Positions 1 through 23,615 of a DNA stretch of 31,988 nt are shown piece after piece. The DNA is from a virus, in the IMG/VR virus record IMGVR_UViG_3300032282_002606, positions 1 to 31,988 of that record. One strand, written 5' to 3'. The notes under the pieces are model-generated. The model did no database searches and had not been told where the DNA came from. It worked only from the letters and a program-made list of their open reading frames with translations. How positions within the stretch are numbered: the first letter of the stretch is position 1; the number at the start of each line of letters is the position of its first letter. The position numbers were made by a program, and so were the translations under genes.

Positions 1-2
1 AA

Positions 3-692
3 GGTTTGTATCTAGTATCTTTTAGTGAGTATATTAACAACAATAATGTATGTTATATTTTTCCAAGAAATAAAACTCAAATAACTACCCCAACATTTAT
101 CGCTCCTTTTAATTATGATTTTTTTACCCCACCACAATTTAACTTAATTGTATCATCACAGATTGGTTACTTTTTGGGGCCAATAGATGATACTGTATTT
201 TTAACAGTATATGACTTTGCAAATCAAGCGTTTTTAGGTAACTCTTTATATTACACACCTATTGAAATTAAACTTAATTCTAGTATTACTCAGGAAGATA
301 CACCATTAACTTCAATTAATTGGTCAACGTATAGTGGAGAATCCGATTTTGACACTTACGATATTGGATTTCCACCAATCTTGAATGTTAATAGACTTAC
401 GATAGGTAAATGTGGTGGTGCAACCGCACACGTTCACCAAGATTACGAATACTCTGACCTAACAATAGATTTATATGACGACTCAATTGATAATTGGGTT
501 ACAGTATGGTCATATACATTAAATAATCCAAATTATGATTTTGAAAGTAGTCCCGATTTATACTTCCCTGGTAATATTGATGTAACATTTGCAAACATTA
601 CTTCAGTAAGTGGTATTAGAATGTATTCAGACCCAGGTCAAGGAGACACTTATCACGATTGGGAAGGATTAGTGTTCAATTTTTTTAATTAA
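3..692 (+). CDS. C-terminal part of a beta-rich protein, possibly a virion protein (5' end outside window)
   Basis: The reading frame is open to the left edge and ends at a TAA at 690-692, so only the last ~230 codons are present and no true start is visible. The product is rich in aromatic, Asn, Ser and Thr residues, has few charges, and has alternating hydrophobic stretches typical of beta-sandwich modules. Residues ~100-228 look like one compact domain: a Trp-Ser-Thr-Tyr start, a Gly-Gly-Ala-Thr-Ala-His-Val-His motif, then repeated strands ending in Trp-Glu-Gly-Leu-Val-Phe-Asn. The arrangement recalls carbohydrate-binding or adhesin-tip modules of phage fibres, but I cannot assign a family. 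There is no signal peptide or membrane segment in the visible part. The next gene follows on the same strand after 44 bases. It could equally be a non-structural protein. Confidence 0.6.
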   Translation, partial: GLYLVSFSEYINNNNVCYIFPRNKTQITTPTFIAPFNYDFFTPPQFNLIVSSQIGYFLGPIDDTVFLTVYDFANQAFLGNSLYYTPIEIKLNSSITQEDTPLTSINWSTYSGESDFDTYDIGFPPILNVNRLTIGKCGGATAHVHQDYEYSDLTIDLYDDSIDNWVTVWSYTLNNPNYDFESSPDLYFPGNIDVTFANITSVSGIRMYSDPGQGDTYHDWEGLVFNFFN

Positions 693-736
693 GAATCGTA
701 ACCCTTAAAAATACATTATATAAAAAAAATAATATT

Positions 737-1666
737 ATGATAAAGTTAATACAAAGAACAACAGATAATAAATACCTTAAATCGGTTGAAACTGAAACTT
801 GGGTTGATAACGTTAAAGAAGCATTTGAAATGACTCATAGAGAATGTGAGGCAGCTAAAACCGCATTAAATGGTATTTTTCTTCCTGAACAATTAAAAGT
901 AATTGTTGATATGAGAAAATACAAATCAATTACCGAAGAAGAAAAAAAGGAGTTATTAGATTTATTAAAAATCGGTTGGAAACCAAATCAAACTAATCAA
1001 GAATTATTAAATAGGTTAGGTAGAGGTGTATCAAAAGATAATAGAGATTTAAATTATTTAATCTCTGACCACATACCAAATGTGATGACTCTTCCACAAA
1101 TCACACAAAAGTTTTGGCAGAATAATGTTTGGTCCGGTAACCAAGGAAGTACACCACAATGTGTTGGATATGCTTGGGCACATTGGATTGAAGATGGTCC
1201 GGTACTTCATACAGGAACTCACCCCGTTGTTAATCCAACAACAATATATAAAGAATCCCAAAAGATTGATGAGTGGCCGGGAGAAAAATATGATGGAACA
1301 TCTGTTAGAGCCGGTGCAAAATATTTAAAGAATACAGGAAAAATTTCCTCATATCTTTGGGCGTTTGACCTAACTACAATGATTAATACTGTCCTAAATG
1401 TGGGACCTGTGGTTGTAGGTACAAACTGGTATTACAATATGTTTTTCCCCGATAAAAACGGTTTAATTAAATTATCAGGTAGACTTGCAGGTGGACATGC
1501 CTATGATGTTAACGGAGTTGATACCGTTAAACAACAATTTAGAATAAAAAATAGTTGGGGTACAAATTGGGGACAACAAGGTCATGCATTTATTTCTTTC
1601 ACTGATATGGCAAGACTTATTAAAGAAAGAGGTGAAGTGTGTTTAGCAATTGAAAATAATTTCTAA
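737..1666 (+). CDS. Papain-fold (C1-like) cysteine protease with N-terminal extension
   Basis: Residues ~120-309 carry the papain signature in the right order: oxyanion-hole Gln136 and nucleophile Cys142 (NQGSTPQCVGYAWA), catalytic His254 (GGHAYDVNG) and catalytic Asn272 in KNSWGTNWG. This predicts an active cytoplasmic peptidase, since no signal peptide or membrane helix is present. Residues 1-115 are a charged, mostly helical region with no Cys-protease motif; it could be an inhibitory pro-region or a separate domain that brings the protease to a partner. The ATG at 737 follows an A-rich leader without Shine-Dalgarno sequence. The gene lies upstream of the DNA polymerase on the same strand and has no T4 counterpart. 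Papain-type enzymes are well known in eukaryotes and in some bacteria and archaea but are unusual in tailed phages. The substrate is unknown: a host protein, a phage precursor, or a cell-surface target after lysis. Confidence 0.85.
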   Translation: MIKLIQRTTDNKYLKSVETETWVDNVKEAFEMTHRECEAAKTALNGIFLPEQLKVIVDMRKYKSITEEEKKELLDLLKIGWKPNQTNQELLNRLGRGVSKDNRDLNYLISDHIPNVMTLPQITQKFWQNNVWSGNQGSTPQCVGYAWAHWIEDGPVLHTGTHPVVNPTTIYKESQKIDEWPGEKYDGTSVRAGAKYLKNTGKISSYLWAFDLTTMINTVLNVGPVVVGTNWYYNMFFPDKNGLIKLSGRLAGGHAYDVNGVDTVKQQFRIKNSWGTNWGQQGHAFISFTDMARLIKERGEVCLAIENNF

Positions 1667-1762: not shown

Positions 1763-4465
1763 ATGATTGACCACCAAGAGATTGAGTCATTCCTACAAGG
1801 AAATGACCCTGAAGAACACATTGTTGCCATAGAATACGACTACGCTAGCAACAACATTTACAAAATAAAAGAAATCCCCGGAAAAGGAAAAGAGATTAGA
1901 AAAGACAACTTCATCGCATTTGCATGGGTTGGTGACTTAAAAGATTTAAACTTTTACAAAGGTTCCAAAGCATTACAGAAAGAAGCTATGACAAAATATG
2001 GTATTGTCATAGACAAGTTAGAGACTAAAGGTAATGAAAGATTAGAAAAAGGTTTAAAGTTTATGGTAAAGTCTCTCAAGGGTTACCGAGAGTTAGTACA
2101 ATTCTTCAGAGACGGAGAATTAGACCCGTGGGGGGACAAAGCCAAGAATAAGATACTCATACTACCCCCAGTGGAACAATACCTTGTTTCACGTGAAAAA
2201 AGACTATTTAAGGGGTATACTGAATACGATGAGGTTACCCGACTTGTATTTGACTTGGAGACCACATCATTGGAACCAAAGGATGGTAGAATCTTTATGA
2301 TTGGAATAAAAACCAATAAAGGATATAACCGGGTTATTGAATGTATTGATGAATCTCAAGAGAGGGGAGCAATTATAGAATTTTTTAAAGTTATAGATGA
2401 ATTAAAACCTTCCATTATAGGTGGATATAATTCAGCAAACTTTGATTGGTATTGGATATTTGAAAGATGTAAAATACTTGGATTAACTATTAAGAAGATA
2501 TGTCGTTCTCTTCACCCTGAATATTCTATCAATCAGAAGAATAGTATGTTAAAACTTGCCAATGAGGTAGAAGAATTCCAACAAACAACAATATGGGGAT
2601 ATAACGTGATTGACATTATCCATTCAGTTAGACGAGCACAAGCAATCAATTCAAGTATTAAGAGTGCTGGTTTGAAATACATTACAAAATTTATTAAAGC
2701 AGAATCTCCTGACCGAGTTTATATTGAACATACAGATATTGGAAAATTATATCTTAATAAAGAAGAGTATTGGTTAAATACTCAAAATGGTAAATATAAG
2801 AAATCGGAAGGGTTTCAGGACTTAGATATTAAGTTTCCCGGTGTTTATGAAAAGTTGACAGGAGATAAGATAGTTGAATTATATCTTGAAGACGATTTGG
2901 ATGAAACATTAAAGGTAGACCACGAATTTAACCAAGCATCGTTCTTACTTGCATCAATGATTCCAACAACATATGAAAGAGTTTCTACAATGGGAACCGC
3001 AACATTATGGAAAATGTTAATGTTAGCATGGAGTTATAAACATAACTTAGCAATACCGGAAAAAGAAAGTAAGACTGATTTCGTGGGGGGATTATCAAGA
3101 TTGTTAATGGTGGGATATTCCAAGAATGTTCTTAAACTTGACTTTAGTTCACTTTATCCTTCAATCCAATTGGTTCACGATGTATTCCCGACCTGTGATG
3201 TTACCGGAGCAATGAAAGGTATGTTAAAGTATTTCCGTGACACTCGTATCAAATACAAACAACTTGCTGAGGAGTTTTATGAATCAGACCCTAAGAAGTC
3301 GGCGACATATGGTAATAAACAGTTACCTATTAAAATATTTATAAATTCCATGTTTGGTGCCCTTTCCGCACCACAAGTATTTGCGTGGGGTGATATGTAT
3401 ATGGGTGAACAGATTACTTGTACCGGAAGACAGTATCTTCGTCAGATGTTAAGATTCTTCTCAAAGAAAGGATATACCCCCCTTGTTTGTGATACGGATG
3501 GTATGAACTTCTCAATACCTGATGGTGTGGAAGATAGAGTTTATATTGGTAAAGGATTGAATTGGAAAGTGAAAGAGGGTAAAGAATACAGAGGATATTA
3601 TGCTGATGTTGCGGAGTTCAACGATACATTCCAAAGAGGTGAAATGGCATTAGATTGTGATGGAACTTGGGATAGTTGTATTAACTTAGCGAGAAAGAAC
3701 TACGCAGTAATGGAATCTAATGGTAAAATTAAATTAACCGGTAACTCAATTAAGAGTAAGAAACTTCCACTTTATATTGAAGAATATTTGGATGTGGCAA
3801 TTAAATTACTATTAGAAGGTAAGGGTAAAGAGTTTGTTGAAAACTACTATGAATATCTACAAAAGATATTTGACAAACAAATTCCATTAAGTAAGATTGC
3901 TCAGAGAGCCAAAGTTAAATTGACTCTTGATGAGTATAAGAAAAGATTAACAACCAAGACTAAAGCAGGAAACAGTATGAGTAGGATGGCACATATGGAA
4001 CTTGTAATAAAAGAAGGTTTAAATATCAATCTTGGTGATATGATTACATACGTTAACAATGGTATTAAATCATCACACGGAGACGTTCAAAAGAAAGGTG
4101 ATGGTGTTCAGATAAATTGTTATCTATTAAATCCCTCAGATATTGAAAAGAATCCTAATTTAACCGGTGAATATAATGTTCCAAGAGCAATCACAACATT
4201 CAATAAGAGAATTGAACCTTTGTTGATTGTATTCGGACAAGAAGTTAGAGATAATTTATTAGTTACGGACCCGGAACAAAGAGGTATATTTACAACATCA
4301 CAATGTCAATTAATTAACGGAATTCCATTTGAACCTCAAGACCAAGATAGTGTTGAAGATTTATTAACAATAACTGAAGCCGAATTAAAGTTTTGGGAAA
4401 GAAGGGGGATTAAACCTGACTATATGTATGACTTAGCTGAGGAGGGGTGGGAAGACAAAGTTTAA
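1763..4465 (+). CDS. Family B DNA polymerase with 3'-5' exonuclease, T4 gp43-like
   Basis: Replicative polymerase. The exonuclease motifs are present: Exo I FDLET with Asp164/Glu166, Exo II GGYNSANFD with Asn223/Asp228, and Exo III Y374-x3-D378. The polymerase motifs follow in order: motif A DFSSLYPS (Asp460), motif B K524-x3-NSMFG, and motif C CDTDG (Asp577/Asp579). Motif C has Gly where the usual family B motif has Ser (DTDS). Length (900 aa) matches T4 gp43 (about 900 aa), so the gene looks complete, with N-terminal, exonuclease, palm, fingers and thumb regions all accounted for. It should act with a sliding clamp and loader encoded outside this window. The ATG at 1763 has no Shine-Dalgarno sequence. 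Its TAA overlaps the stop of the convergent minus-strand gene. No intein or intron interrupts the catalytic motifs. Confidence 0.97.
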   Translation: MIDHQEIESFLQGNDPEEHIVAIEYDYASNNIYKIKEIPGKGKEIRKDNFIAFAWVGDLKDLNFYKGSKALQKEAMTKYGIVIDKLETKGNERLEKGLKFMVKSLKGYRELVQFFRDGELDPWGDKAKNKILILPPVEQYLVSREKRLFKGYTEYDEVTRLVFDLETTSLEPKDGRIFMIGIKTNKGYNRVIECIDESQERGAIIEFFKVIDELKPSIIGGYNSANFDWYWIFERCKILGLTIKKICRSLHPEYSINQKNSMLKLANEVEEFQQTTIWGYNVIDIIHSVRRAQAINSSIKSAGLKYITKFIKAESPDRVYIEHTDIGKLYLNKEEYWLNTQNGKYKKSEGFQDLDIKFPGVYEKLTGDKIVELYLEDDLDETLKVDHEFNQASFLLASMIPTTYERVSTMGTATLWKMLMLAWSYKHNLAIPEKESKTDFVGGLSRLLMVGYSKNVLKLDFSSLYPSIQLVHDVFPTCDVTGAMKGMLKYFRDTRIKYKQLAEEFYESDPKKSATYGNKQLPIKIFINSMFGALSAPQVFAWGDMYMGEQITCTGRQYLRQMLRFFSKKGYTPLVCDTDGMNFSIPDGVEDRVYIGKGLNWKVKEGKEYRGYYADVAEFNDTFQRGEMALDCDGTWDSCINLARKNYAVMESNGKIKLTGNSIKSKKLPLYIEEYLDVAIKLLLEGKGKEFVENYYEYLQKIFDKQIPLSKIAQRAKVKLTLDEYKKRLTTKTKAGNSMSRMAHMELVIKEGLNINLGDMITYVNNGIKSSHGDVQKKGDGVQINCYLLNPSDIEKNPNLTGEYNVPRAITTFNKRIEPLLIVFGQEVRDNLLVTDPEQRGIFTTSQCQLINGIPFEPQDQDSVEDLLTITEAELKFWERRGIKPDYMYDLAEEGWEDKV

Positions 4466-5938: not shown

Positions 5939-7690
5939 TTAATTTCTTAAATCATTAATTCTTTTTAATATTTCTTCAGCAGCATCTATTGGAGTTTGAT
6001 TATCACCCATAACAGTTGCAATAACTTGTTTCTTCGCATTTATAATATCGTATATAATACCTTCAACGGTATTCTCAAATAGAGGGTAATAAACTAATAC
6101 ATTATTTTTTTGTCCGTATCTATAACATCTATCTTCCGCCTGTGAATGGTCAGAAGGTAAAAATGATAAGTCGTTCATTATAACCGCTTCACCAGCGGTA
6201 AGAGTAATTCCAACTCCGGCTGCTTTAATATTTCCAACTAATACTTTAACTTTAGGATTATCTTGAAATTCATCAACAGAATGTTGTCTATGTTCTTTGG
6301 ACATTGAACCATCTATCTTAACCGCAGATTTACCAAAGTGTTCAACAATTCTATTTAATGAATCTGTAAAGTTACAAAATATAACAACTTTCTTATCTTG
6401 TTCTAAAATATTTTCAGCAAGTTCAATTGTGTGTGAAATTTTTTCATCCGCAATAACTTGTCTTACTTTGGTTAGTTTTGAAAACTGAACGGTAAGTGAT
6501 TTAGATTCTTCCGGATTCTTATCATACCAATCATAATATTCACCCATTATTTCTTCATAATTTTTGGATTTCAATCTAATGTAGATTGGTGTGATAATTT
6601 TATCAGGTAAATCAAGAACATCTTCTTTTAATCTTCTCAATATTGTTGCCGATGTTCTATCCCTTAATTCTTCCAAATTGGTTGCACCCATTACATTCCA
6701 CACTTTTCTTGGACCCGCTTGAAATTGAAACCCATTACAATATCTTATAACATACGCCATCCAATTCTTAGCAACAGGAGAATCAACTAAACTTAAAAGA
6801 TTATAATAATCAATCGGACGAGATGTCATAGGTGTTCCGGTTAATAACCATAACCTATCAATATCTTTAACAAAATGATTTATTAGTTTTGTTCTTTGGG
6901 CTTGAGCATTTTTGATATAGTGTGCTTCATCAACAACCACCAAATCAAAATTCGCATCAAGAATTTGTGAATTCTTTTTGTCTTTAACATCATGAAAATT
7001 TTTAATAATATCGTAGTTTATTATAACAAAGTCGTGTTCAGTTGAGAAATTTTTACTTTCCGCAATGAATATACTTCTGTCTGAATAATTTTCAATTTCT
7101 CTTTTCCAATTTATTTTAAGTGTCGCCGGACAAATAATTAACACTTTTTTAGCTCCCGATTCTAATGCTGCAATAATAGTGGAAGTTGTCTTTCCCAACC
7201 CCATATCATCCGCAAGAATGAACTTTTTATTCTCAACTAACTTTTGTATTGCTTCTTTTTGGTGGGATAGTGGCGGACGGTTAGAATATTTGTCATAATC
7301 AATCACAACATCTTTTACTGTATTATCTTTAATGATTGCCGCCTTTGGTATCCAAAATTCATGTAATTCCTCATTTTCAAACATTTTACCCCAAATATGG
7401 AACGCCTTTTCTTTTTCCGCCAATATTTTTTCAACATAAACTTTTTCGGGGACAACCATAGAAAATTTATCGTCCGCAAACTTCTGAGCAAAGTAAGAAT
7501 CAAGGACTGCCCATTTTTTGGCAACCTTCGGTATTTTATTATGATTTTCAATAATATATTCTGATTGACTACGAGTAGGGTAAAACTTCTTATTTATTTG
7601 AAACTTTCTTTTAAGTCCCAAAATATAGTTATTAAACCCTTCATATGTCTCAAGAATTGTTATTGCTTTTGATTCTAAACTTGCTTGCAT
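5939..7690 (-). CDS. SNF2-family DNA helicase/translocase
   Basis: A 583-aa SF2 ATPase. I chose the ATG at 7690 because the longer open frame to 7735 would cover the divergent promoter region. Motif I is DDMGLGKT (Lys167), motif II is VVVDEAHYIK (Asp254-His257) and motif III is LLTGTP (283-287). The C-terminal RecA-like lobe has VVIFCNF (motif IV region), KAAGVGITL (motif V) and QAEDRCYRYGQ (motif VI, about 517-527, with arginine-finger candidates). The spacing and the RCYRYGQ-type motif VI place it in the SNF2 group rather than near T4 UvsW, although the role in fork remodelling, recombination-dependent replication or R-loop removal may be equivalent. The N-terminal 140 residues lack a recognised zinc finger or nuclease. 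It is transcribed away from the AT-hook gene across a 48-bp divergent gap. Confidence 0.93.
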   Translation of the reverse strand: MQASLESKAITILETYEGFNNYILGLKRKFQINKKFYPTRSQSEYIIENHNKIPKVAKKWAVLDSYFAQKFADDKFSMVVPEKVYVEKILAEKEKAFHIWGKMFENEELHEFWIPKAAIIKDNTVKDVVIDYDKYSNRPPLSHQKEAIQKLVENKKFILADDMGLGKTTSTIIAALESGAKKVLIICPATLKINWKREIENYSDRSIFIAESKNFSTEHDFVIINYDIIKNFHDVKDKKNSQILDANFDLVVVDEAHYIKNAQAQRTKLINHFVKDIDRLWLLTGTPMTSRPIDYYNLLSLVDSPVAKNWMAYVIRYCNGFQFQAGPRKVWNVMGATNLEELRDRTSATILRRLKEDVLDLPDKIITPIYIRLKSKNYEEIMGEYYDWYDKNPEESKSLTVQFSKLTKVRQVIADEKISHTIELAENILEQDKKVVIFCNFTDSLNRIVEHFGKSAVKIDGSMSKEHRQHSVDEFQDNPKVKVLVGNIKAAGVGITLTAGEAVIMNDLSFLPSDHSQAEDRCYRYGQKNNVLVYYPLFENTVEGIIYDIINAKKQVIATVMGDNQTPIDAAEEILKRINDLRN

Positions 7691-7738: not shown

Positions 7739-8491
7739 ATGAAACTTTATACTTTTTATAACGACTTATTAGTTGAAGGAAGATATTTCTCGGAAGAAAA
7801 ATATAATTTTATTATTGATAACTTAGGTGATATGTTATTTAATAAGTTATCAATTGAACCTAAATTAGTTCAATCTTTACCTGAAATATTTAGGTTTAAA
7901 TCTTATTTGAAAAAATATATACCCAATCCAATTATAAACGATGAAGATATTGTATATAATCTTTCCGAATATGGTGAATGGTTAAAGTATTTTTCAGATT
8001 CTGAATTTTCAAAAATAGTTAATGGAATTTTTACCTTATTTCCCGACATTAAAAAAAATGTTAATGATTTTAATAAACCAAAAAGAGACCCAAATTTACC
8101 TCCATCAAGGAGAGGGAGACCTCTGGGTTCAAAATCAACCCCAAAACCAATTCAGTTTAGTAGAGTAATCTCAAGAACTAAACCGGAACCAAAAGATATG
8201 GTTATTGGTTCTAATGAACCCGTTTCAACTAAAGAACCAAAACCTACATTATATTTGGGTCCTGAAGATTCGTTACGAAAAAGAGGTAGAAAACCAATTG
8301 ATGATGGTCTAACTTCTATGGAGAGAATAAAATATAAGGCGGAGGGTCCCGAAATGATTGAAAAATTGGAAAAAAAGATTATCGATATTGATAACGAAAC
8401 AAATAGACAAATTGATATTGCAACCCAACGAATTAAAAAAATAATGAAAGATATAGAAAAAAGAAAAAATTATTTTGGTTTAACAGATTAA
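7739..8491 (+). CDS. AT-hook DNA-binding protein with a capsid-targeting-like N-terminus
   Basis: A 250-aa protein. I prefer ATG 7739 to an in-frame TTG at 7721, which lies inside the promoter-like element. Two AT-hook-like cores are clear: SRRGRPLGSK (residues ~123-132) and RKRGRKP (180-186). They sit in a Pro/Lys/Arg-rich, probably disordered stretch (~113-190). Residues ~194-245 are highly charged and likely form a coiled coil. The N-terminus has LVE at residues 11-13 followed by Gly, matching the (L/I)xE cleavage pattern of T4 prohead protease and resembling the short targeting peptides of T4 internal proteins. I infer a minor-groove binding protein that may be packaged in the head with the DNA. 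It heads a coupled operon, with the next gene starting 2 bases later. A transcription factor role is the main alternative. Confidence 0.7.
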   Translation: MKLYTFYNDLLVEGRYFSEEKYNFIIDNLGDMLFNKLSIEPKLVQSLPEIFRFKSYLKKYIPNPIINDEDIVYNLSEYGEWLKYFSDSEFSKIVNGIFTLFPDIKKNVNDFNKPKRDPNLPPSRRGRPLGSKSTPKPIQFSRVISRTKPEPKDMVIGSNEPVSTKEPKPTLYLGPEDSLRKRGRKPIDDGLTSMERIKYKAEGPEMIEKLEKKIIDIDNETNRQIDIATQRIKKIMKDIEKRKNYFGLTD

Positions 8492-8493
8492 AT

Positions 8494-9006
8494 ATGGAAA
8501 AATTAGTTCCGATAACAAGATTAGGTAGATTTTTTGGTGGAGAAGACTATGCGTTGGATATTGATATGGGTCAAGAATGGCTTCACGGAGATATGAACTT
8601 CACTGTTATCCTATACAGAGTTGATAGATATAAGACCAAAACTGATGATGTTTATGGTGAGGTAGTTGAGGATGGTGTTAAGTTTCACCCCCCCATTGAA
8701 CTGAAAGGTTTAGTTAAAATAGTTGCACCAACCAACCAAAAATTAGGTAATTCTAAGTTAAGACAAGAAGAACCGGGTAATATGACATTTTCAATTTACC
8801 AAAAACAATTGGATGATTTACAAGTAGATATCTTATTTGGTGACTATTTAGGATATTATGAGACGGAGAGTAAAGTGAGATATTATAGTGTTGCGGATGA
8901 TGGTAGGGTTGTTTCAGATAATAGACACACTTATGCCGGGTATAAACCTTTTTATAGAACTATACTTGCAACACCGGTAAGTCAAAATGATTTTAAAGGA
9001 ATATGA
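8494..9006 (+). CDS. Conserved phage structural protein, possible head-closure/neck protein (gp14-like role)
   Basis: A 170-aa protein that looks mostly beta. It has an N-terminal LGRFFGGEDYALDIDMGQEW segment, a central ELKGLVKIV strand, and a conserved-looking block FGDYLGYYETE followed by RYYSVADDGRVVSDNRH and YAGYKPFYRTI near the C-terminus. The FGDYxGY motif with a following strand is typical of small beta-barrel head-closure proteins, and the place just before a putative tail terminator and the sheath gene fits a neck component. This is inference from motif style and synteny; no enzyme signature is visible. Its TGA overlaps the next ATG (ATGA), which points to translational coupling. Only two bases separate it from the AT-hook gene. 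Confidence 0.55.
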   Translation: MEKLVPITRLGRFFGGEDYALDIDMGQEWLHGDMNFTVILYRVDRYKTKTDDVYGEVVEDGVKFHPPIELKGLVKIVAPTNQKLGNSKLRQEEPGNMTFSIYQKQLDDLQVDILFGDYLGYYETESKVRYYSVADDGRVVSDNRHTYAGYKPFYRTILATPVSQNDFKGI

Positions 9007-10749: not shown

Positions 10750-13700
10750 ATGGCTACAACTCAAACTAATCAAAAAGTATTCGTTTCTCCGGGTGTTTAT
10801 ACATCAGAAACGGATTTATCGTTCGTTGCTCAAAGTGTGGGGGTTACCACATTGGGACTTGTTGGTGAAACAATCAAAGGTCCTGCATTCGAACCTATTT
10901 TTATAACTAACTATGATGAATTCCAAAATTATTTTGGCGGAACTGAACCAACAAAATTTGTGGATACTCAGATACCAAAATATGAAGCGGCATACATCGC
11001 TAAATCTTACCTACAACAATCAAACCAATTGTTTGTAACAAGAATTCTTGGTTTGTCAGGTTATGATGCGGGTCCTTCTTGGAGCATTAAGGCAATCGCG
11101 AATGTGGAACCTAGAACAATAAACTTGTTAACCGATCCGGGTAATGATTGGTCAGTAACAATAACGGGAGACTTATCCGGTGGTTCTTTTACAGTTTTGT
11201 CGGGGTCTTTTCCGGGTATAGTTGATACTAACATAAATAAACAATATAGGTTAATAAATGGTTCTGTTTCAACACTATCTGATGATTTTAATAATTTTGC
11301 AAGAGGTTTTGTTAACGATCCAAATTCAATGAGTACCACATCAATTATGTATGGTGCAATTTCAAGTAGTGATTACAATAATGTTGTCCAAACTTACAAT
11401 AACGTTATTAACGTATATGGTTGTGACTCTAATGATTTAACATTTAACGATTTGGAATCATCTAGTAATGATCCTTGGTACTACGCTAATTTTGATATAA
11501 CTTCAGGTATTATCTATGACGGATATTCCATATACTTTTATTCTGAAAATTTAACAACAACTTCAACAACATTTGAAATCACATTTACAGGTAAAGAATA
11601 CGCTTTTGATGGTTTGGCATATAGTGCGTATAATGACACAATTATGGCAACTATTCGTTCAAGAGGTATTTCATTATTTACAAATAGTAGTAGTTCAATA
11701 AATCACGGACCAATTTATGAAGTATCAGGAACAACAGATCAATTTGGTACTTTTATTGGTGATGATTTACAAATGATTTGTTCTAATCAATATGAAAGTG
11801 TTAAACAAAATCCTTATAGTACTTTCTTATTATCAGGTTTTACTAAAGATTTAAACGATTTTAAATTTGAAGTTTCTTTATTACCTTCAAGTACGAAATA
11901 TATTCAAAAAGTATTAGGTTCATCTAATTTTGATAAAGATAGATTCCAAGTACCTGTTTTTGTTGAAGAAGCATTTCCAGGTCAACTAGAATATACTTAC
12001 AATAAAGGTTATATTCGTGGATTAAATTGTGAATTAATTGCTTTACCAAGTGCAAGAAGTAGGAACACTCAATCAATTGGGTGGAACTTAGAGAAATATA
12101 CAACACCAATGACACCATTTTTGGTTTCTGAATTAAGAGGTAATAAAGTATATAACTTATTTAGATTTGTTTCAATTTCAGACGGAACAGACGCAAATAC
12201 AGAAATAAAAGTATCAATTGCAAATATCTCTTTTAATAATATGTCATTTGATATATTAGTTAGAAATTTCTATGATACAGATAAAAACCCTGTAGTTATT
12301 GAAAAATACACTAACTGTACTATGAATCCTACATCAAATAGTTTTGTGGGTAAAAAAATAGGTACTGTTAATGGTGAATATGAATTAAAATCTAAATATA
12401 TTATGTTGGAATTAGCAAGTGAATTTCCAACAGATTCATTACCTTGTGGTTTTTATGGATATACTCAGAGAGTTTATGGTAGTTTAGATAACAAATCACC
12501 AATTCCTATTTATAAATCAAAATATAATTATCCCGGTGAACCTTTATACAACCCACCATTTGGTTCAACTGCAGGTGGAGAAAATATAATTTCATCAGGA
12601 GGTGATAATGTTAGAAGAACTTATTTAGGGTTTTCTAGTGAATTTGGAGTTGATGAGTCTTTTTTACAATACAAAGGTAAACAAAATCCGGCAACAAATT
12701 GGGAAACATCAACAGAATCAACAGAATGGAGTTATTTAACAAAAGGTTTTCACATGGATTCCGGTGCAACTGTTGTTAGAATCTCAAATTCGTTTGGTTC
12801 AAGTGGTGAAACTGCATTTGATGTTGGTGTTGCTGATTTTAGAAATGATCCTGAAAGTCAAGAAAATCCGTACTACTTTATTTATTCAAGAAAATTCACA
12901 GTATGTTTTGCAGGTGGATTTGACGGATGGGATATATATAGAAAAGACAGAACAAACAAAGATGAATATCAATTAGGTTCCACAGGTTTCTTAGCAGGAT
13001 TTTATCCATCTTCAAGATATCCAAATGCAACAGGTGACGGAATATTTAAAAGAATTACTATAAATAAAAATACTGTTGATTACGCTAATACTGATTATTA
13101 TGCATATCTTTTAGGTATTCAAACATTCTCTAATCCTGAGGCTGTCAATATAAATGTATTTGCAACAGCAGGTATTGATTATGTGAATAATTCTAATCTT
13201 GTAGAAGCTGCGGTTAATATGATTCAATACTCAAGAGCGGATTCAATTTATATTACAACAACACCTGATTACTCAATGTATACACCAGATAGTACTGATT
13301 CTCAAAACATTATACAACCACAAGAAGCGGTAGATAATTTGGATAACATCGGTTTAGATTCTAACTATACCGCGACATACTATCCTTGGATATTAACAAG
13401 AGATACAGTTAATAATACTCAAATATATCTTCCACCAACCGGTGAAGTTTGTAGAAACTTAGCATTAACTGATAACATTTCATTCCCTTGGTTCGCATCA
13501 GCGGGTTACACAAGAGGTTTGGTTAACTCAATTAAAGCAAGAACAAAACTAACTCAAGAAGATAGAGACATTCTTTATCAAGGAAGAATTAATCCAATTG
13601 CAACTTTCTCTGATGTTGGTACTGTAATTTGGGGTAATAAAACTCTTCAAATATCTGACTCAGCACTTAACAGATTGAATGTTAGAAGATTATTATTACA

Positions 13701-13980
13701 AGCACGTAAGTTAATATCCGCAGTTGCTGTAAGATTATTGTTTGAACAAAACGATCAAGTTGTAAGACAACAATTCTTGGATAGTGTTAACCCAATATTA
13801 GATTCAATCAGAAGAGATAGAGGTTTATATGATTTCCGTGTAACTGTTTCTTCATCTACTGAAGATTTAGATAGAAACACATTAACAGGTAAAATTTATA
13901 TTAAACCAACAAAAGCGTTAGAATTTATAGATATTGAATTCTTAATTACACCTACAGGTGCGTCTTTTGAAAACATTTAA
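10750..13980 (+). CDS. Giant tail sheath protein, T4 gp18-like
   Basis: A 1076-aa contractile sheath protein. The N-terminus has the hallmark SPGVYTSETDLSFVAQS, then GLVGETIKGPAFEP and YIAKSYLQQSNQLFVTRILGLSGYDAG (to about residue 103). The C-terminal ~200 residues carry the conserved sheath core: ATFSDVGTVIWGNKTLQ, LNRLNVRRLLLQARKLISAVA, FEQNDQVVRQQF and the final GKIYIKPTKALEFIDIEF strand that links neighbouring subunits. T4 gp18 is 659 aa, so ~400 extra residues sit in the middle, between the N-terminal handshake region and the conserved core. They are beta-rich and Ser/Asn/Tyr-heavy, as expected of surface-exposed insertion domains. A strong terminator follows the stop. The start ATG has an A/T-rich leader with no Shine-Dalgarno sequence. 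Confidence 0.95.
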   Translation: MATTQTNQKVFVSPGVYTSETDLSFVAQSVGVTTLGLVGETIKGPAFEPIFITNYDEFQNYFGGTEPTKFVDTQIPKYEAAYIAKSYLQQSNQLFVTRILGLSGYDAGPSWSIKAIANVEPRTINLLTDPGNDWSVTITGDLSGGSFTVLSGSFPGIVDTNINKQYRLINGSVSTLSDDFNNFARGFVNDPNSMSTTSIMYGAISSSDYNNVVQTYNNVINVYGCDSNDLTFNDLESSSNDPWYYANFDITSGIIYDGYSIYFYSENLTTTSTTFEITFTGKEYAFDGLAYSAYNDTIMATIRSRGISLFTNSSSSINHGPIYEVSGTTDQFGTFIGDDLQMICSNQYESVKQNPYSTFLLSGFTKDLNDFKFEVSLLPSSTKYIQKVLGSSNFDKDRFQVPVFVEEAFPGQLEYTYNKGYIRGLNCELIALPSARSRNTQSIGWNLEKYTTPMTPFLVSELRGNKVYNLFRFVSISDGTDANTEIKVSIANISFNNMSFDILVRNFYDTDKNPVVIEKYTNCTMNPTSNSFVGKKIGTVNGEYELKSKYIMLELASEFPTDSLPCGFYGYTQRVYGSLDNKSPIPIYKSKYNYPGEPLYNPPFGSTAGGENIISSGGDNVRRTYLGFSSEFGVDESFLQYKGKQNPATNWETSTESTEWSYLTKGFHMDSGATVVRISNSFGSSGETAFDVGVADFRNDPESQENPYYFIYSRKFTVCFAGGFDGWDIYRKDRTNKDEYQLGSTGFLAGFYPSSRYPNATGDGIFKRITINKNTVDYANTDYYAYLLGIQTFSNPEAVNINVFATAGIDYVNNSNLVEAAVNMIQYSRADSIYITTTPDYSMYTPDSTDSQNIIQPQEAVDNLDNIGLDSNYTATYYPWILTRDTVNNTQIYLPPTGEVCRNLALTDNISFPWFASAGYTRGLVNSIKARTKLTQEDRDILYQGRINPIATFSDVGTVIWGNKTLQISDSALNRLNVRRLLLQARKLISAVAVRLLFEQNDQVVRQQFLDSVNPILDSIRRDRGLYDFRVTVSSSTEDLDRNTLTGKIYIKPTKALEFIDIEFLITPTGASFENI

Positions 13981-18330: not shown

Positions 18331-21300
18331 ATGGGTAATAGTCCTTTAGATTTTCCATCTACCGAATCGTTTAGGGTAAAGTTAAATAGAAGAAATTTAG
18401 CACCTTATCCTAAATCACCTAACCGAGCACAACCCCCAATTAATTATGAGGTTGTTTTACGGGATTATGCTGTCGTTGATTCACCTGATGTTTTAATAGA
18501 TGAACCCATATTAGCAAATGAATTATACTCATTAAATAGATATGGACAAGACGGTGGGTATGATATTGTTGCTGATCCAAATAGAATATTAAATACCCAA
18601 TCAAACTTAGGGGAATATGGGTACCAAGATGCTAATATAATACAAGAAGCTCCTTATGAGGCGAATAAACCCGGTGGATGGAAAGTGTTGAATGCTTACG
18701 GAGACGGGACAACAGGTATATCAGATTCGGCGGTAGACATATCAAGATTAGATATTTTAGTAATAAATCAAGGAAGAACAGGTAATTCACAACCATATCC
18801 TACAACTTTTGTCCCATCATCATACACACCTTTAAGTATATTATTAAGTGACGCACCTTCGGGTACTAATGGTTCTCTTAGTCAAGATTCTTTTATTGCA
18901 CGATTAGGTGCTAAGGTATTGAGGAAAGAGTTCCAAGATAGAGTTGCTAGACAACTTCTTAGACAAACAATTGGAAGAGCCAATATATTAAATCCGAATA
19001 GTGGTACAGGTGTATTAGGGGTGATAACAGGTTCGGTACCATTATTAGAACCTAATTATTCAATTACAATTCCTTCTAACCCGATAACCGCATCCGCACA
19101 ATTTGCTTTAAGCTTAGCAGGAAGTTATATACCGGTATCACCTATACCGGGTTCGTACTTTGATAGTTCAATTAATGCCGGACAACCAACAACACTTCAA
19201 CAAATTACCAATGCATTTACAAATACAGGTGTTGGTAATTTTTTATCAAGTTTATTAGGACCACCAAAAAATGGTTCACAATTATTTTTAAATAATACCG
19301 GGGCAGGACAGAAATCATTGTTATTTAAAAATTTAGATTATAACAAATTTAAACCCGGATATGAAAGAAATTTTATTGATAGATTAGGTGGGGTATTATT
19401 TGGTACGAGTGCTAATAATAGTAACTACTATATCGGTTCAACAAGTTCGGAACCATCAAGAGTTTTTTCACCAAGTAATGATTTACCTGTAGATGAATTT
19501 AATAGGGAAATACAGTCACCTGTTTATGGACCTTCTGAAATGGCTCAACTATATGAAGGACCTAGCCAAAGTATTAAATTGGGTGCAAATGGACCTACTT
19601 ATAGTGATGGGGGAGGTATTGAAGGTGGATTTACATGGGTATCACCTAAATATAAGGGAAATGCGGGGTATAAAGTCGGTGTTGGGGGTGAGAATATCAA
19701 ACAAGACTCAGACTTCAAGGAAGCGTCTTATAATTCGACAGAATCAACAAATTTTGAATTTAAAGGTGGATCAATATTAGATGATACCCAAAGGATAATT
19801 AAAAGTCAACCTAGTGGTGGTAGAAGATTAAAACATGTAGGTAATGCTATGGATCAGGTTAGTAAAGTGTTCAATGATGGATATAAAGAATTAACCAAAG
19901 GTTCAAGAGTGTTATCGTATGTTGGAGATATTGGACAAGAAAAAGGTGCGGAATATTGTAGAGTATTTGCCAAAGATACCCCTTATTTACAATATAATGA
20001 TTTACAAAAAACTGATGGTATTACTACAGAAGGAAGAAGATTTAGTTATTCGGTATTTGATAAGACATATAATTTAAATATGTATCCAAATAAACAGGAA
20101 GGGGGACAAGATTCAACCAATCTAATTGGGGGAGGAGAGAACGGATATGCAAAAAAATATATGTTTTCTATTGAAAATCTTTCATGGAGAACATCAAATA
20201 AACCGGGGTATACATGGGCAGATTTACCAATTTGTGAAAGAGGGCCTAATCATGGTAGAGTAATGTGGTTCCCCCCATATGGATTAACATTTACTGAAGG
20301 TAGTAGTGCAAGTTGGAAATCAACAGATTTTATAGGTAGACCTGAACCAATTTATACTTATAGTAATACAAATAGAACAGGTACTTTATCTTGGAAAATA
20401 GTTGTGGATCATCCATCTGCATTAAATGTTATTGTAAATAAAGTTTTAAATAATGAAACAAATAAAACAAGGGTTGATAGTATATTAGAATCTTTTTTTG
20501 CTGGATGTAGAAAGTATGACTTATACGATTTGGCAAAAAAATATTACATGATTAAAACAAGTGATTTAACTCAAATACAAACTGAGTTAAATAACAAAAC
20601 ATTATCAACTGAACAAATAAAATATGTTGATAAAACTGTTAACAATGGTGGTCAGGTTGTTAAAACACCTGAAGTAGAACCCACAAATCCGTTCACAAAA
20701 TATGAACAATTAGGGTTTTATTTTGATAATGATATACCCAAAAAAGATTCGACAGTAACATCGTTTGATGACTATTATACACCATATATTGGGGAAAAAA
20801 CTGTTTATATTAATAATAATGCAATAACAGGACAATTTTTTTCGGACATAATTGAAAACAATTTCCAAGAGTTAATTAACTTGGCAAACGATTTAGTTAA
20901 TGAATATACTAAAAATCCAAATATATTAGTAACTATTAGATTAGTAGGAAGTGCGTCCGCACCGGCAACAAAAACATATAATGTTGCTTTATCACAAAGA
21001 AGAATTGATTCGGTTAGAAACTGGTTTAAAACATATCCTATTTTATCACAAGCAATCGGTCCTGACAATAACGGTAATTTAAAAATAATGGGATCTCCAC
21101 AAGGAGAACAAACTGTGGTAACGCCAAGAGGACAAAAAGTATTTAATACTTATACTTGTTCTGATCAAGATAATAAATCAACATTATCTCACGAAATATA
21201 TACAATAAATGCGATGGCGTGTAGGCGAGTTGCGATTGCGTCAATTGAAGCGAAAATTGGAGGAGTTCCTGCAAGTGAGTCAAAAACACCCGATAATTTT

Positions 21301-23292
21301 GTAACAACAACAACTGGTACCGTAGAAAAAGGTACTAAAACAGTAACAGAAGAAGTTCAAAGAACCGTTTTAAGGGATAATATAACAAAAAGAGTGTTAA
21401 GATCTTTATTATCAGAATGTGATTATTTTGAAACAATTAAAGAAGAAACACCATTAGTGTTTGACAACTTAAAAGATAAACTTAAATTCTTTCACCCATC
21501 GTTCCACTCAATGACACCGGAAGGTTTAAATTCAAGATTAACTTTCTTACAACAGTGTATGAGACCTGGTGATACAATACCTGTAGTTAAAACTATTGAT
21601 GGTAAAGACCAATTAGAATATAATAACGCAACTAATACGGCGTTTGGTGCACCACCGGTACTCGTATTAAGAGTGGGTGATTTTTATAATACAAAAATTA
21701 TACCGGATAATTTAAGTTTAACATATGAAAGTTTGGATATAAATCCTGAAGGTATTGGAATTCAACCTATGATAGCAAATGTTACATTAACATTTAAATT
21801 TGTTGGTGGAAGTGGATTAAAAGAAGCGGTTGATAAAATCCAAAACGGACTTTCATTTAATTTTTATGCTAACACAGAAATCTATGATGATAGAGCGGAT
21901 GTTACAGATGATAGTTATAAAGTTCTAGATAAGAATTTTTTAGATGCTATTGGGTTTGAAGTACCACCACCAACAGTAAATCAAGCAACAAACGACAACG
22001 GACAAAATAATAATAATACAATTGGAACAATAAAAACAAAAAATCCTACACAAACAGGAGAAACAGGGACAATTATATATAAAGATTTTATGGTTTATCT
22101 TGTTAATTCGTCCCAAGAATACTTCCAAAACATTATTAATAAATCAAAAGAAGTTAACACACAATATAATAATGCTGTATTACAAGTTTGGTCTTCGGAA
22201 AGAAAATATGTTGATGGTTATTTCCAATTAGATATTACTAATAAAGTAAAATTGTTTGGAAAACCTAATGATGTTGATAAAAAAGTTGATAAGATTATAA
22301 AAAAATTCGCAGACGATATTGATTCAAATAATGAATATTTAATAAAATGGATTGATAGTCGTAATTTCACCTCGAAAGTAAAAAGAAAATTAAAAGATAA
22401 TTACATTAATTATATTAATACTAAGAAAAATACATTTACAACTGGTTTAAATACAATAACACAAAATATTGTATTACAAGAACAAAATTATATTTCTAAG
22501 ATAGCAAGAGCAAATGTGATAACATTTGGTAGATTAGCTGAATCAAGAACGGACGGATTACAACAAAAAAATGGGTTTGTTGTGGTATATATAACAACAC
22601 CAACAAATAAAGTTACGGATAAAACTAAGGCAAATACTTTAGATGAATTAGAAGACGATATAAGAATTATAAGAACTTCAATTAACGATTATTACGATAA
22701 AATTAATAATCCACAAACTTTTATTTCTGACTCTCAGAATTATTCGGGTATTTTAACTTATGGTGGAAGTAATTCTAAAATTATTAGTGGAAATGTTTTT
22801 AATCCGTTTACTGATGGGTTTAGTGATGTTTCTTTACAAAGAAGTTATTTCCTTTTAAGTAATGATATTTTAGATTCAAAAAAGTACCAAATTTTTAAAC
22901 AAAGTTTAATTGGGGATATTATAAATAATCCTTCTATAATAGGTAATCAAAGAACTGATTTAGAACAACAATTTGATGAATGTTGGAATACTGTTAAACC
23001 TATATTTGAAAAAGAAAATAAAGTAACTAATGATTTTTTAAGTGAAATGGAAAAAAATTATTTAAAAGATTTTGTAAAGTATACACCATTTAATACCGCC
23101 AAAGAATATGAATTTGATTATACAGTATATTCAAAAGATGTTACACCAATTGAAAAACCATTAGAAAAACCTAGAAAAGAATACATCGAATCGTTGGGTT
23201 ATTCTACAAATAAGAATACTAATGATGAATGGTCTAGTGAAACCACAGTTTCCGGACATAAGATAATAATATCTAAAGTAAAACTTAACTAA
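18331..23292 (+). CDS. Giant tail/baseplate protein with tube-like domains and an OmpA-like domain
   Basis: A 1653-aa protein. Residues ~1-600 are Ser/Asn/Gly-rich with few helices. Residues ~605-745 have a tube-like module (YMFSIENLSWRT, GRVMWFPPYGLTF, FIGRPEPIYTY, then WKIVVDHPSALN). Residues ~820-980 resemble an OmpA/MotB peptidoglycan-binding domain: LVGSASAPATKTYN, then LSQRRIDSVRNWF at 887-899, with Arg890/Arg891. The Asp that usually precedes (for example D271 in A. baumannii OmpA) appears to be replaced by Ala/Ser, so muropeptide binding is uncertain. Residues ~1053-1185 hold a second tube/tube-initiator-like module with FHPSFHSMTPEGLNSR, LVLRVGDFYNTKI and FVGGSGLKEAV. The remaining ~430 residues are charged and helical. 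A T4 gp48/gp54-like tube-cap or hub role fits its place between tape measure and gp53-like genes. The stop and next start overlap (TAATG). Confidence 0.75.
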   Translation: MGNSPLDFPSTESFRVKLNRRNLAPYPKSPNRAQPPINYEVVLRDYAVVDSPDVLIDEPILANELYSLNRYGQDGGYDIVADPNRILNTQSNLGEYGYQDANIIQEAPYEANKPGGWKVLNAYGDGTTGISDSAVDISRLDILVINQGRTGNSQPYPTTFVPSSYTPLSILLSDAPSGTNGSLSQDSFIARLGAKVLRKEFQDRVARQLLRQTIGRANILNPNSGTGVLGVITGSVPLLEPNYSITIPSNPITASAQFALSLAGSYIPVSPIPGSYFDSSINAGQPTTLQQITNAFTNTGVGNFLSSLLGPPKNGSQLFLNNTGAGQKSLLFKNLDYNKFKPGYERNFIDRLGGVLFGTSANNSNYYIGSTSSEPSRVFSPSNDLPVDEFNREIQSPVYGPSEMAQLYEGPSQSIKLGANGPTYSDGGGIEGGFTWVSPKYKGNAGYKVGVGGENIKQDSDFKEASYNSTESTNFEFKGGSILDDTQRIIKSQPSGGRRLKHVGNAMDQVSKVFNDGYKELTKGSRVLSYVGDIGQEKGAEYCRVFAKDTPYLQYNDLQKTDGITTEGRRFSYSVFDKTYNLNMYPNKQEGGQDSTNLIGGGENGYAKKYMFSIENLSWRTSNKPGYTWADLPICERGPNHGRVMWFPPYGLTFTEGSSASWKSTDFIGRPEPIYTYSNTNRTGTLSWKIVVDHPSALNVIVNKVLNNETNKTRVDSILESFFAGCRKYDLYDLAKKYYMIKTSDLTQIQTELNNKTLSTEQIKYVDKTVNNGGQVVKTPEVEPTNPFTKYEQLGFYFDNDIPKKDSTVTSFDDYYTPYIGEKTVYINNNAITGQFFSDIIENNFQELINLANDLVNEYTKNPNILVTIRLVGSASAPATKTYNVALSQRRIDSVRNWFKTYPILSQAIGPDNNGNLKIMGSPQGEQTVVTPRGQKVFNTYTCSDQDNKSTLSHEIYTINAMACRRVAIASIEAKIGGVPASESKTPDNFVTTTTGTVEKGTKTVTEEVQRTVLRDNITKRVLRSLLSECDYFETIKEETPLVFDNLKDKLKFFHPSFHSMTPEGLNSRLTFLQQCMRPGDTIPVVKTIDGKDQLEYNNATNTAFGAPPVLVLRVGDFYNTKIIPDNLSLTYESLDINPEGIGIQPMIANVTLTFKFVGGSGLKEAVDKIQNGLSFNFYANTEIYDDRADVTDDSYKVLDKNFLDAIGFEVPPPTVNQATNDNGQNNNNTIGTIKTKNPTQTGETGTIIYKDFMVYLVNSSQEYFQNIINKSKEVNTQYNNAVLQVWSSERKYVDGYFQLDITNKVKLFGKPNDVDKKVDKIIKKFADDIDSNNEYLIKWIDSRNFTSKVKRKLKDNYINYINTKKNTFTTGLNTITQNIVLQEQNYISKIARANVITFGRLAESRTDGLQQKNGFVVVYITTPTNKVTDKTKANTLDELEDDIRIIRTSINDYYDKINNPQTFISDSQNYSGILTYGGSNSKIISGNVFNPFTDGFSDVSLQRSYFLLSNDILDSKKYQIFKQSLIGDIINNPSIIGNQRTDLEQQFDECWNTVKPIFEKENKVTNDFLSEMEKNYLKDFVKYTPFNTAKEYEFDYTVYSKDVTPIEKPLEKPRKEYIESLGYSTNKNTNDEWSSETTVSGHKIIISKVKLN

Positions 23293-23615
23293 TGTCTATA
23301 CAATACTTTAATAGATATCGAAATTTTTTAATAAATGGTGAACAAACTGTTGTTCCTTACGTGCAATTACCACAAAAAACGACAGATAAAACTTATATTT
23401 ATAAAGTCGGTAAAAGTAGGTTGGATAAAGTTTCACAAGAATATTATACAACACCTTTCTTTGGGTGGTTAATTTTACAAGCAAATCCTAAATTTGGTGG
23501 GTTAGAAAATAATATTACTGATGGTTCAATCTTGATTATTCCATATCCTTTATTAACATCATTACAGGACTATAATAGTGCTTTAGAAAATTATTTTTAT
23601 TATTATGGCAGATAA
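23292..23615 (+). CDS. Baseplate protein with LysM-like fold, T4 gp53-like
   Basis: A 107-aa protein. The core is a LysM-type module: TYIYKVGKSRLDKVSQEYYTTPFFGWLILQANPKFGGLENNITDGSILIIPYP (residues ~34-85), with the usual Tyr-x-Val-x-x-Gly/Ser then a Gly-Trp-Leu-Ile-Leu helix and an Ile-x-Pro closing strand. T4 gp53 uses the same fold to join wedges. In many myophages a small LysM-like protein near the hub genes plays the same part. It starts in a TAATG overlap with the stop of the upstream giant gene and ends 11 bases inside the downstream one, so it is strongly coupled. It is too short to be a lysin and has no secretion signal. Confidence 0.8.
   Translation: MSIQYFNRYRNFLINGEQTVVPYVQLPQKTTDKTYIYKVGKSRLDKVSQEYYTTPFFGWLILQANPKFGGLENNITDGSILIIPYPLLTSLQDYNSALENYFYYYGR

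What the first reader, a model, noticed from the sequence alone, without database searches (positions are those of the whole stretch)
737..1666. A papain-type protease in a phage, with a full catalytic set and an unassigned N-terminal half
Gln136, Cys142, His254 and Asn272 are all present in the canonical order, so this should be an active enzyme. Papain-fold peptidases are unusual in tailed phages, and the gene sits next to the DNA polymerase rather than in a lysis or head module. The ~115-residue front part could be an inhibitory pro-region. It might cleave a host protein early in infection, or a phage precursor.
Basis: partly seen in the sequence, partly recalled or inferred. Interest (0 to 1): 0.7.

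Follow-up and report, generated by a model that had tools for sequence, protein, structure and literature searches.

The report
Phage papain-like protease, swappable heads
A tailed phage carries a papain-type protease that is probably active, and in related phages the same protease sits on the end of several unrelated phage proteins, some of which look like cell-attachment proteins, as if it were a portable tool that the virus can mount on different holders.

Summary
The ORF at 737-1666 (309 aa) is real and holds Gln136, Cys142, His254 and Asn272. It passes Pfam's cut-off for papain peptidases (PF00112), and its AlphaFold model matches the bacterial protease xylellain (Z 21.7). Cys and His are kept in 80 of 80 related viral loci, Asn in 79 of 79.

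Residues 1-79 are a separate phage protein: nearly identical stand-alone 79-aa genes lie at the same place in other phages. The window's gene is a fusion with a junction near base 970, the end of that small gene.

The surprise is the family. The protease domain is fused to the C-terminus of at least six kinds of front end. At one locus next to DNA polymerase, near-identical phages carry it behind three unrelated heads. Each of 45 records searched has exactly one copy. Some of these heads elsewhere carry adhesin-like proteins.

Best reading: a portable protease cargo, displayed on tail or adhesin carriers, that cleaves host surface proteins. Virion location and substrate are inferred. Xylellain-type peptidases in phages are already in print; carrier swapping I did not find in print.

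The parts
6..692 (+). C-terminal part of a fibre- or adhesin-like gene that runs off the window's left end
   Evidence: window 1-971 is 88% identical to L035 3194-4164, which covers the end of a 453-aa ORF and the 79-aa gene; no Pfam match, no PHROG match
737..973 (+). Head: residues 1-79, homologous to a stand-alone 79-aa phage protein (N79)
   Evidence: 91-95% identical stand-alone genes at the same locus; model strands 2-7, 12-16, 21-23, helix 34-44, strand 53-58, block pLDDT 91-94 up to residue 50
966..971 (+). Recombination junction: left side matches N79-alone phages, right side matches L045 (protease and polymerase)
   Evidence: blastn breakpoints and identity in 30-base bins
971..1015 (+). 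Linker (IGWKPNQTNQELLNR) shared with the other N79-type fusion, L045
   Evidence: pLDDT under 50 at residues 78-85
1016..1663 (+). Papain-type (C1) peptidase domain, residues 94-309, including the N-terminal LGR..D.RD..YLI motif
1142..1144 (+). Codon of Gln136 (oxyanion-hole residue by C1 family convention, recalled)
1160..1162 (+). Codon of Cys142 (catalytic nucleophile by homology)
1496..1498 (+). Codon of His254 (catalytic by homology)
1550..1552 (+). Codon of Asn272 (catalytic by homology)
1763..4465 (+). Phage DNA polymerase gene, conserved right-hand flank of the locus
   Evidence: phrog_262 E 5.8e-52; follows C1 closely in L045, L046, L071, L073, L075, L086-L088, L090, L097, L098

Best explanation
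The gene encodes a probably active xylellain-type C1A cysteine peptidase that works as a portable C-terminal cargo. Shown: the peptidase fold (by prediction) and conserved catalytic set; a fusion junction at the end of a separate small gene; the same domain on at least six different front ends; carriers swapped between closely related phages by recombination at the domain's N-terminal edge; one copy per record. Inferred: the carriers are tail or baseplate adhesins, so the protease is displayed on the virion (or released next to it) and cleaves host surface proteins during adsorption or entry, as tailspike depolymerases do for polysaccharides. In the window the carrier is the 79-aa N79 protein, whose own role is unknown.
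For: Fold and active site. Head is a separate gene. Junction. Carriers among the 80 loci (labels of seven rows corrected by eye as told in the report): 43 on a large protein, usually 660-1520 aa before the domain, 9 on a ~125-aa beta-sandwich head, 2 on a short head plus the end of the large protein, 2 on a 95-aa head, 1 on an 87-aa head, 1 on N79 (L045), 21 stand-alone, 1 cut off by the contig end. Same locus, three unrelated heads: L097, L071, L075 are 93-96% identical over about 8 kb from the domain's start through the polymerase. Exactly one copy in 45 of 45 records, up to 350 kb. Of 14 records with the large carrier, 7 have the protease on it and 7 have it elsewhere. At least 11 carrier changes on a 54-row tree. 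Display on the virion: of 18 ORFs with the beta-sandwich head in these loci 9 end in the protease, 8 in other tails, mostly with Pro/Thr-rich stalks, 1 has no tail; one such tail holds a P-domain, and an 87-aa-type head fronts a DUF285/PKD protein; Foldseek matches of the head-protease model include BppU-domain and minor tail proteins.
Against: No virion proteome of these phages was at hand. In Xanthomonas phage XacN1 the stand-alone C1 peptidase (ORF382) is not named among the lytic enzymes detected in virions (PMC5852040, passages). 21 of 80 loci are stand-alone, so a carrier is not essential. In Gordonia and Arthrobacter phages the stand-alone gene lies in the lysis cassette beside holin genes, which suggests a late role. 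N79 has no known function or virion link. The large carrier's front part has no Pfam or PHROG match of note and no PDB sequence match. The BppU matches have TM-scores of about 0.2 on the query and the tool gives no query range.
Confidence: 0.5

Rival explanations
1. Maturation protease: the domain cuts itself off its carrier or trims neighbouring adhesins during assembly, like the self-releasing C-terminal domains of some tail spikes.
For: Always at the C-terminus of its carrier; unstructured or Pro/Thr-rich linkers in front of it; shares loci with adhesin-like genes.
Against: Stand-alone copies in 21 of 80 loci and in actinophages keep the full catalytic set; the same protease serves unrelated carriers, and linkers before the LGR motif differ between carriers; related carriers exist without it.
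Confidence: 0.2
2. Lysis or release factor: made late, it degrades periplasmic or surface proteins, or detaches debris, to help progeny leave.
For: In Gordonia phages Forza, Aleemily and Lilbeanie it lies between endolysin genes and the holin; in Arthrobacter phage Mufasa8 next to a holin. XacN1 authors list it among potential lytic enzymes (PMC5852040, passages).
Against: In the loci of the window's relatives that I read no lysis gene was recognised next to it; neighbours are adhesin-like genes, glycosyltransferase-like genes and DNA polymerase. Fusion to adhesin-type heads is not expected for a soluble lysis factor. Signal peptides were not tested.
Confidence: 0.15
3. Intracellular host-takeover or anti-defence protease; the fusions are accidents of gene order.
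For: Patchy presence: 10 of 11 N79 records show none, though they may be fragments; in Streptomyces phage BillNye and Mycobacterium phage Quesadilla it lies among non-structural genes; the window's domain has only two cysteines, the nucleophile and Cys302, so no disulphide that would mark an exported protein.
Against: At least six kinds of front end and at least 11 carrier changes are more than accident; no match in PADLOC, although that library lists defence, not counter-defence.
Confidence: 0.12
4. N79 is a regulatory pro-domain after all.
For: In L066 an N79-type gene overlaps the start of the protease gene by four bases, so the two are coupled there as well; VIA alignments to some pro-cathepsins begin near residue 60.
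Against: 10 of the 11 records found with N79 alone show no protease at all; 78 of the 79 loci with a readable carrier have the protease without a fused N79; head 1-58 and protease are separated by disordered stretches.
Confidence: 0.05

Closest known systems
Xylellain (PDB 3ois), short bacterial C1A peptidase of Xylella fastidiosa
   Same: Best PDB match by sequence profile (E 9.6e-13), by Foldseek (E 2.4e-11) and by VIA (Z 21.7, rmsd 3.1, 213 aligned, 20% identity); the Gln, Cys, His, Asn positions align.
   Different: Only 20% identical; xylellain is cellular and not fused to a phage head.
Phage C1A peptidases: PHROG 16701, XacN1 ORF382, Gordonia and Streptomyces 'cysteine protease' genes
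   Same: Same domain, invariant catalytic residues, 26-42% identical.
   Different: Those shown are stand-alone genes of about 210-240 aa; the window's is behind N79, and close relatives are on large carriers.
BppU-type baseplate proteins and modular receptor-binding proteins
   Same: The ~125-aa head of some carriers is predicted as a beta-sandwich, with Foldseek matches of the whole model to BppU-domain and minor tail proteins; heads shared between different tails.
   Different: No significant PDB sequence match of the head; BppU is recalled as carrying binding domains, not a protease.
NlpC/P60 and CHAP tail lysins
   Same: Papain-like fold, sometimes tail-associated (PMC7824862, passages).
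   Different: Peptidoglycan hydrolases of other families; this one matches C1 itself.
Polymorphic toxins with exchangeable C-terminal domains
   Same: N-terminal parts joined by recombination to a swappable C-terminal catalytic domain (PMC3482391, start of abstract in the listing; otherwise recalled).
   Different: Here a phage gene, one copy per record, no immunity gene looked for.

Membership tests
Peptidase family C1 (papain), clan CA | Significant match to PF00112 | tested here: met
   28.4 bits, cut-off 20.7, E 2.2e-6; 10 of 10 close homologues
Peptidase family C1 (papain), clan CA | Gln, Cys, His, Asn in this order and conserved | tested here: met
Peptidase family C1 (papain), clan CA | Papain fold | tested here: met
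   AlphaFold model, blocks of residues 101-309 at pLDDT 85-98 except one at 69; Foldseek E 2.4e-11 to 3ois, 269 matches under 0.001; 365 of 996 chains at Z 8 or more
Peptidase family C1 (papain), clan CA | Measured cysteine-protease activity blocked by E-64 | not testable with these tools
   needs purified protein
Xylellain-type short bacterial C1A | Closest solved relative is xylellain, including the N-terminal segment before the catalytic domain | tested here: met
   (model 86-308 aligned to 3ois 25-290)
Cathepsin-type zymogen | N-terminal inhibitory pro-region belonging to the enzyme | tested here: not met
   residues 1-79 are an independent gene product and are absent from most relatives. 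A short regulatory role of residues 93-118 was not tested
BppU-like baseplate protein (the ~125-aa head of related carriers, not the window's head) | Beta-sandwich fold with structural match to BppU-domain proteins | tested here: inconclusive
Virion-displayed enzyme | Present in purified virions | not testable with these tools
   Only related data: XacN1 ORF382 not named among virion-detected lytic enzymes
NlpC/P60 or CHAP peptidoglycan hydrolase | Match to those Pfam families | tested here: not met
   Only PF00112 and PF03051 listed at E up to 10

The most novel reading that the evidence does not exclude
A group of uncultivated large phages keeps a single papain-type protease as an exchangeable tool, mounted by recombination on whichever surface protein is in use. 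It is the protein-cutting counterpart of tailspike depolymerases: the virion shaves, or clips open, host surface proteins such as receptors, decoys or S-layer-like coats.
Probability: 0.4. Interest if true: 0.78.

Novelty: new variant of a known kind. Interest (0 to 1): 0.55.

Why it matters
Phage enzymes that cut sugars or peptidoglycan on the cell surface are well known; a conserved protease shown as a portable cargo on phage surface proteins would be a different way of dealing with the cell surface and would make proteins, not only glycans, targets of virion enzymes. The natural head swaps give sets of near-identical phages whose protease sits on different carriers, so the question is testable. 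It also corrects a likely annotation error: the front part is a different phage gene, not a zymogen pro-region.

Tried and rejected
Pro-region reading of residues 1-115: rejected. First alignment A1 (18 sequences) could not be used for collection scans (searches returned an error that it had no conserved stretch); a closer set of 10 (A2) was used instead. Search of cellular genomes gave only 5 weak partial matches, so a bacterial donor was not traced. The small genes before the protease in actinophages were tested as possible partners: three in Gordonia phages weakly match endolysin families (E 4e-4 to 5e-10), the others gave nothing that helped. The ~125-aa head and the large carrier have no meaningful PDB match by sequence. 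N79 alone matches no Pfam family and only PHROGs above E 0.03. NCBIfam gave one chance match (E 0.013, 14 bits against a cut-off of 330) and PADLOC none. Promoter and terminator scans gave no more than shuffles. Megablast of the window's first 20 kb in phage records: no match.

Automatic carrier labels were wrong for seven rows and were corrected by eye: L086-L088 and L090 are 227-aa stand-alone genes labelled 'big', and L100-L102 are beta-sandwich-head fusions labelled 'big+bppU'. The single-linkage clustering joined several head classes and was not used for counts. The tree used 53 of the 80 loci plus the window: near-copies were dropped, as were L094 (cut by contig end) and L124; L075 was added back although it is a near-copy. 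VIA rows are limited to Foldseek's candidates, and one domain filled the list, so the fold of residues 1-58 was not tested on its own. Paper searches with no report of carrier-fused or carrier-swapping phage C1 peptidases: (open-licence library only).

Full report
OBSERVATION. The ORF 737-1666 encodes 309 aa. PF00112 is matched above its curated cut-off (28.4 bits, cut-off 20.7, E 2.2e-6), and PHROG 16701 'peptidase' at E 9.5e-56 over residues 93-306. A profile of ten close homologues finds xylellain (3ois) first in the PDB, E 9.6e-13, then cathepsin B-like enzymes. The AlphaFold model made from a 57-row alignment has mean pLDDT 87.6 and pTM 0.69. Foldseek's best solved match is xylellain (E 2.4e-11); VIA gives Z 21.7, rmsd 3.1 over 213 residues, model 86-308. 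I could not measure the distances within the active site, since coordinates are not given; that the residues cluster follows from the fold and from the aligned motifs.

ACTIVITY. The four residues are invariant in 18 of 18 diverse phage homologues. In the 80 loci (its cap; 95 stretches matched a pattern and 80 were confirmed) Cys and His are present in 80 of 80, Asn in 79 of 79 with letters there; L110 ends before it. Gln is 80 of 80, but the search pattern included it. Between the window and L045 the domain has dN 0.080 and dS 0.926. An active enzyme is therefore likely, though not shown.

THE FRONT PART IS ANOTHER GENE. Residues 1-78 match stand-alone 79-aa genes at 95, 95 and 91% in L018, L019 and L020; in L018 the fibre-like gene lies before it and the polymerase after it, with no protease. 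A search with this part alone found 11 loci, none with a fusion to the protease. At the DNA level the window matches L034 (the same contig as L018) at 92% up to base 966 and resumes at 1684; it matches L035 at 88% up to 971; and it matches L045 at 87% from 971 through the polymerase. So the window's gene was made by recombination at the very end of the small gene. L045 has the same linker and protease behind a diverged N79-type head (44% over 50 residues), so the fusion is not an assembly error of one contig. In L066 an N79-type gene of 114 aa overlaps the start of a separate protease gene by four bases, ATGA, an arrangement one step short of fusion. In the model residues 59-64 and 78-85 are below pLDDT 50. 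This speaks against a covering pro-region. A short N-terminal motif, LGR..D.RD..YLI (residues 93-109), goes with the protease in the close relatives and lies in the part that aligns with xylellain's N-terminal stretch; it may be regulatory (inference).

ONE PROTEASE, MANY CARRIERS. Full ORFs of the 80 loci give, after correction by eye of seven automatic labels: 43 on a large protein, usually with about 660-1520 aa before the domain, 9 on a ~125-aa head, 2 on a short head followed by the end of the large protein, 2 on a 95-aa head, 1 on an 87-aa head, 1 on N79 (L045), 21 stand-alone and 1 undetermined because the contig ends (L094). Many of these are near-copies; 54 of 80 remain at under 93% identity. 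L097, L071 and L075 are 93-96% identical from the domain's start through the polymerase, about 8 kb, yet have three unrelated heads. On a tree of 54 rows the carriers need at least 11 changes (shuffled mean 25.9, so carriers are also inherited); well-supported pairs with different carriers are L079 with L065 and L099 with L104. The tree is a quick one and several stand-alone rows have long branches.

ONE COPY, MOVING. I gave 45 records to a profile search (the window's and those of 44 of the 80 loci): exactly one place in 45 of 45, with records up to 350 kb. In 24 of these records I searched for the large carrier: 14 have it; in 7 the protease is on it, and in 7 (G002, G013, G017, G026, G028, G032, G034) it lies elsewhere. 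In G026 and G034 the last part of the large carrier (model positions from about 626) sits beside the protease on the new head, as if it had moved with it. Of 11 records with N79 alone, 10 show no protease and 1 has it on the large carrier. All are virus contigs, often fragments, so absence is weak evidence.

WHAT THE CARRIERS ARE. Of 18 ORFs with the ~125-aa head in these loci, 9 end in the protease, 8 in other tails, mostly with Pro/Thr-rich stalks, and 1 is the head alone. One such tail holds a P-domain (PF01483, E 7.6e-7), and a protein with an 87-aa-type head holds 12 DUF285 stretches and PKD. The head is predicted as a beta-sandwich; among Foldseek's BFVD matches of the head-protease model are 'BppU domain protein' (E 2.0e-5 and 9.4e-5) and minor tail proteins of Microbacterium phages (about 1e-4), with TM-scores near 0.2 on the query and no query range given. 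In L097 and L071 a row of genes upstream looks like glycosyltransferases and methyltransferases (my reading), and the polymerase follows. Near the large carrier in L063 are glycosyltransferases and a gene matching tail families phrog_863 and phrog_754. That the carriers are surface or tail proteins is therefore likely but indirect; 'LamG-like' for the end of the large carrier is recalled from its sequence and no search confirmed it.

MECHANISM. I commit, at 0.5, to a displayed protease that cuts host surface proteins during adsorption or entry. Shown: domain, conservation, fusion, swapping. Inferred: virion display, extracellular action, substrate. Against it: XacN1's stand-alone peptidase ORF382 is listed by its authors as a potential lytic enzyme and is not among those they name as found in virions (PMC5852040, passages); and in Gordonia and Arthrobacter phages the stand-alone gene lies in the lysis cassette. 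The stand-alone forms may thus serve release, or the same surface-cleaving purpose at the end of infection.

WHAT IS KNOWN. [quoted passage not shown] phage records carry the names 'papain family cysteine protease', 'peptidase' or 'cysteine protease'. A classification of papain-like peptidases (PMC10318531, passages) and a jumbo-phage survey (PMC7824862, passages) did not, in the passages I saw, describe carrier-fused C1 domains; the latter describes sometimes tail-associated NlpC/P60. A paper on large aquatic phages with predicted Bacteroidota hosts (PMC12619734, passages) does not contain the word papain. Ten searches found no report of carrier swapping (listed under tried and rejected). The only polymerases found in the phage records at E under 1e-20 are of Salinibacter phages at about 23% identity, so host assignment of the window is only a guess.

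VERDICT. The finding is real. Its kind is known, its architecture is a new variant, and the pro-region idea is replaced by a head-swapping protease cargo.

Noticed in passing
L109, L113, L117, L119, upstream of the stand-alone protease (touching it to about 750 bases away): A 207-aa gene of the same length lies upstream of the protease in four large-phage loci; the three tested in Pfam and two in PHROGs match nothing. Whether the four are homologous was not tested.
   Followed up: partly
L033 8001-8576 (Prevotella phage Lak-B5): A divergent C1 match in a Lak megaphage lies where the standard-code ORF (8232-8576) covers only part of the match; a reassigned stop codon (recalled for Lak phages) may explain it.
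   Followed up: no
L086 2359-4542: The ~125-aa head fronts a 727-aa protein with a proprotein-convertase P-domain (PF01483), which seems unusual for a phage.
   Followed up: partly
L072 8668-14571: A 1967-aa protein with an 87-aa-type head, 12 DUF285 stretches and PKD domains directly downstream of the protease gene.
   Followed up: partly
window 10750-13980: Tail sheath gene of 1076 aa; the sheath profile phrog_23 (496 positions) matches best at residues 782-1074, so there is a very long N-terminal or inserted part.
   Followed up: no
window 18331-23292 and 23605-30414: Two very large ORFs (1653 and 2269 aa) downstream of tail genes with no PHROG match at E 0.01.
   Followed up: partly
L097 1-7500 versus L071 1-6200: Otherwise near-identical phages differ in the set of glycosyltransferase- and methyltransferase-like genes upstream of the adhesin-protease locus (gene names are my reading).
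   Followed up: no
L071 near 7202-7527: A tandem array of about 66-base units ends shortly before the protease gene (seen as self-overlapping matches to L073).
   Followed up: no
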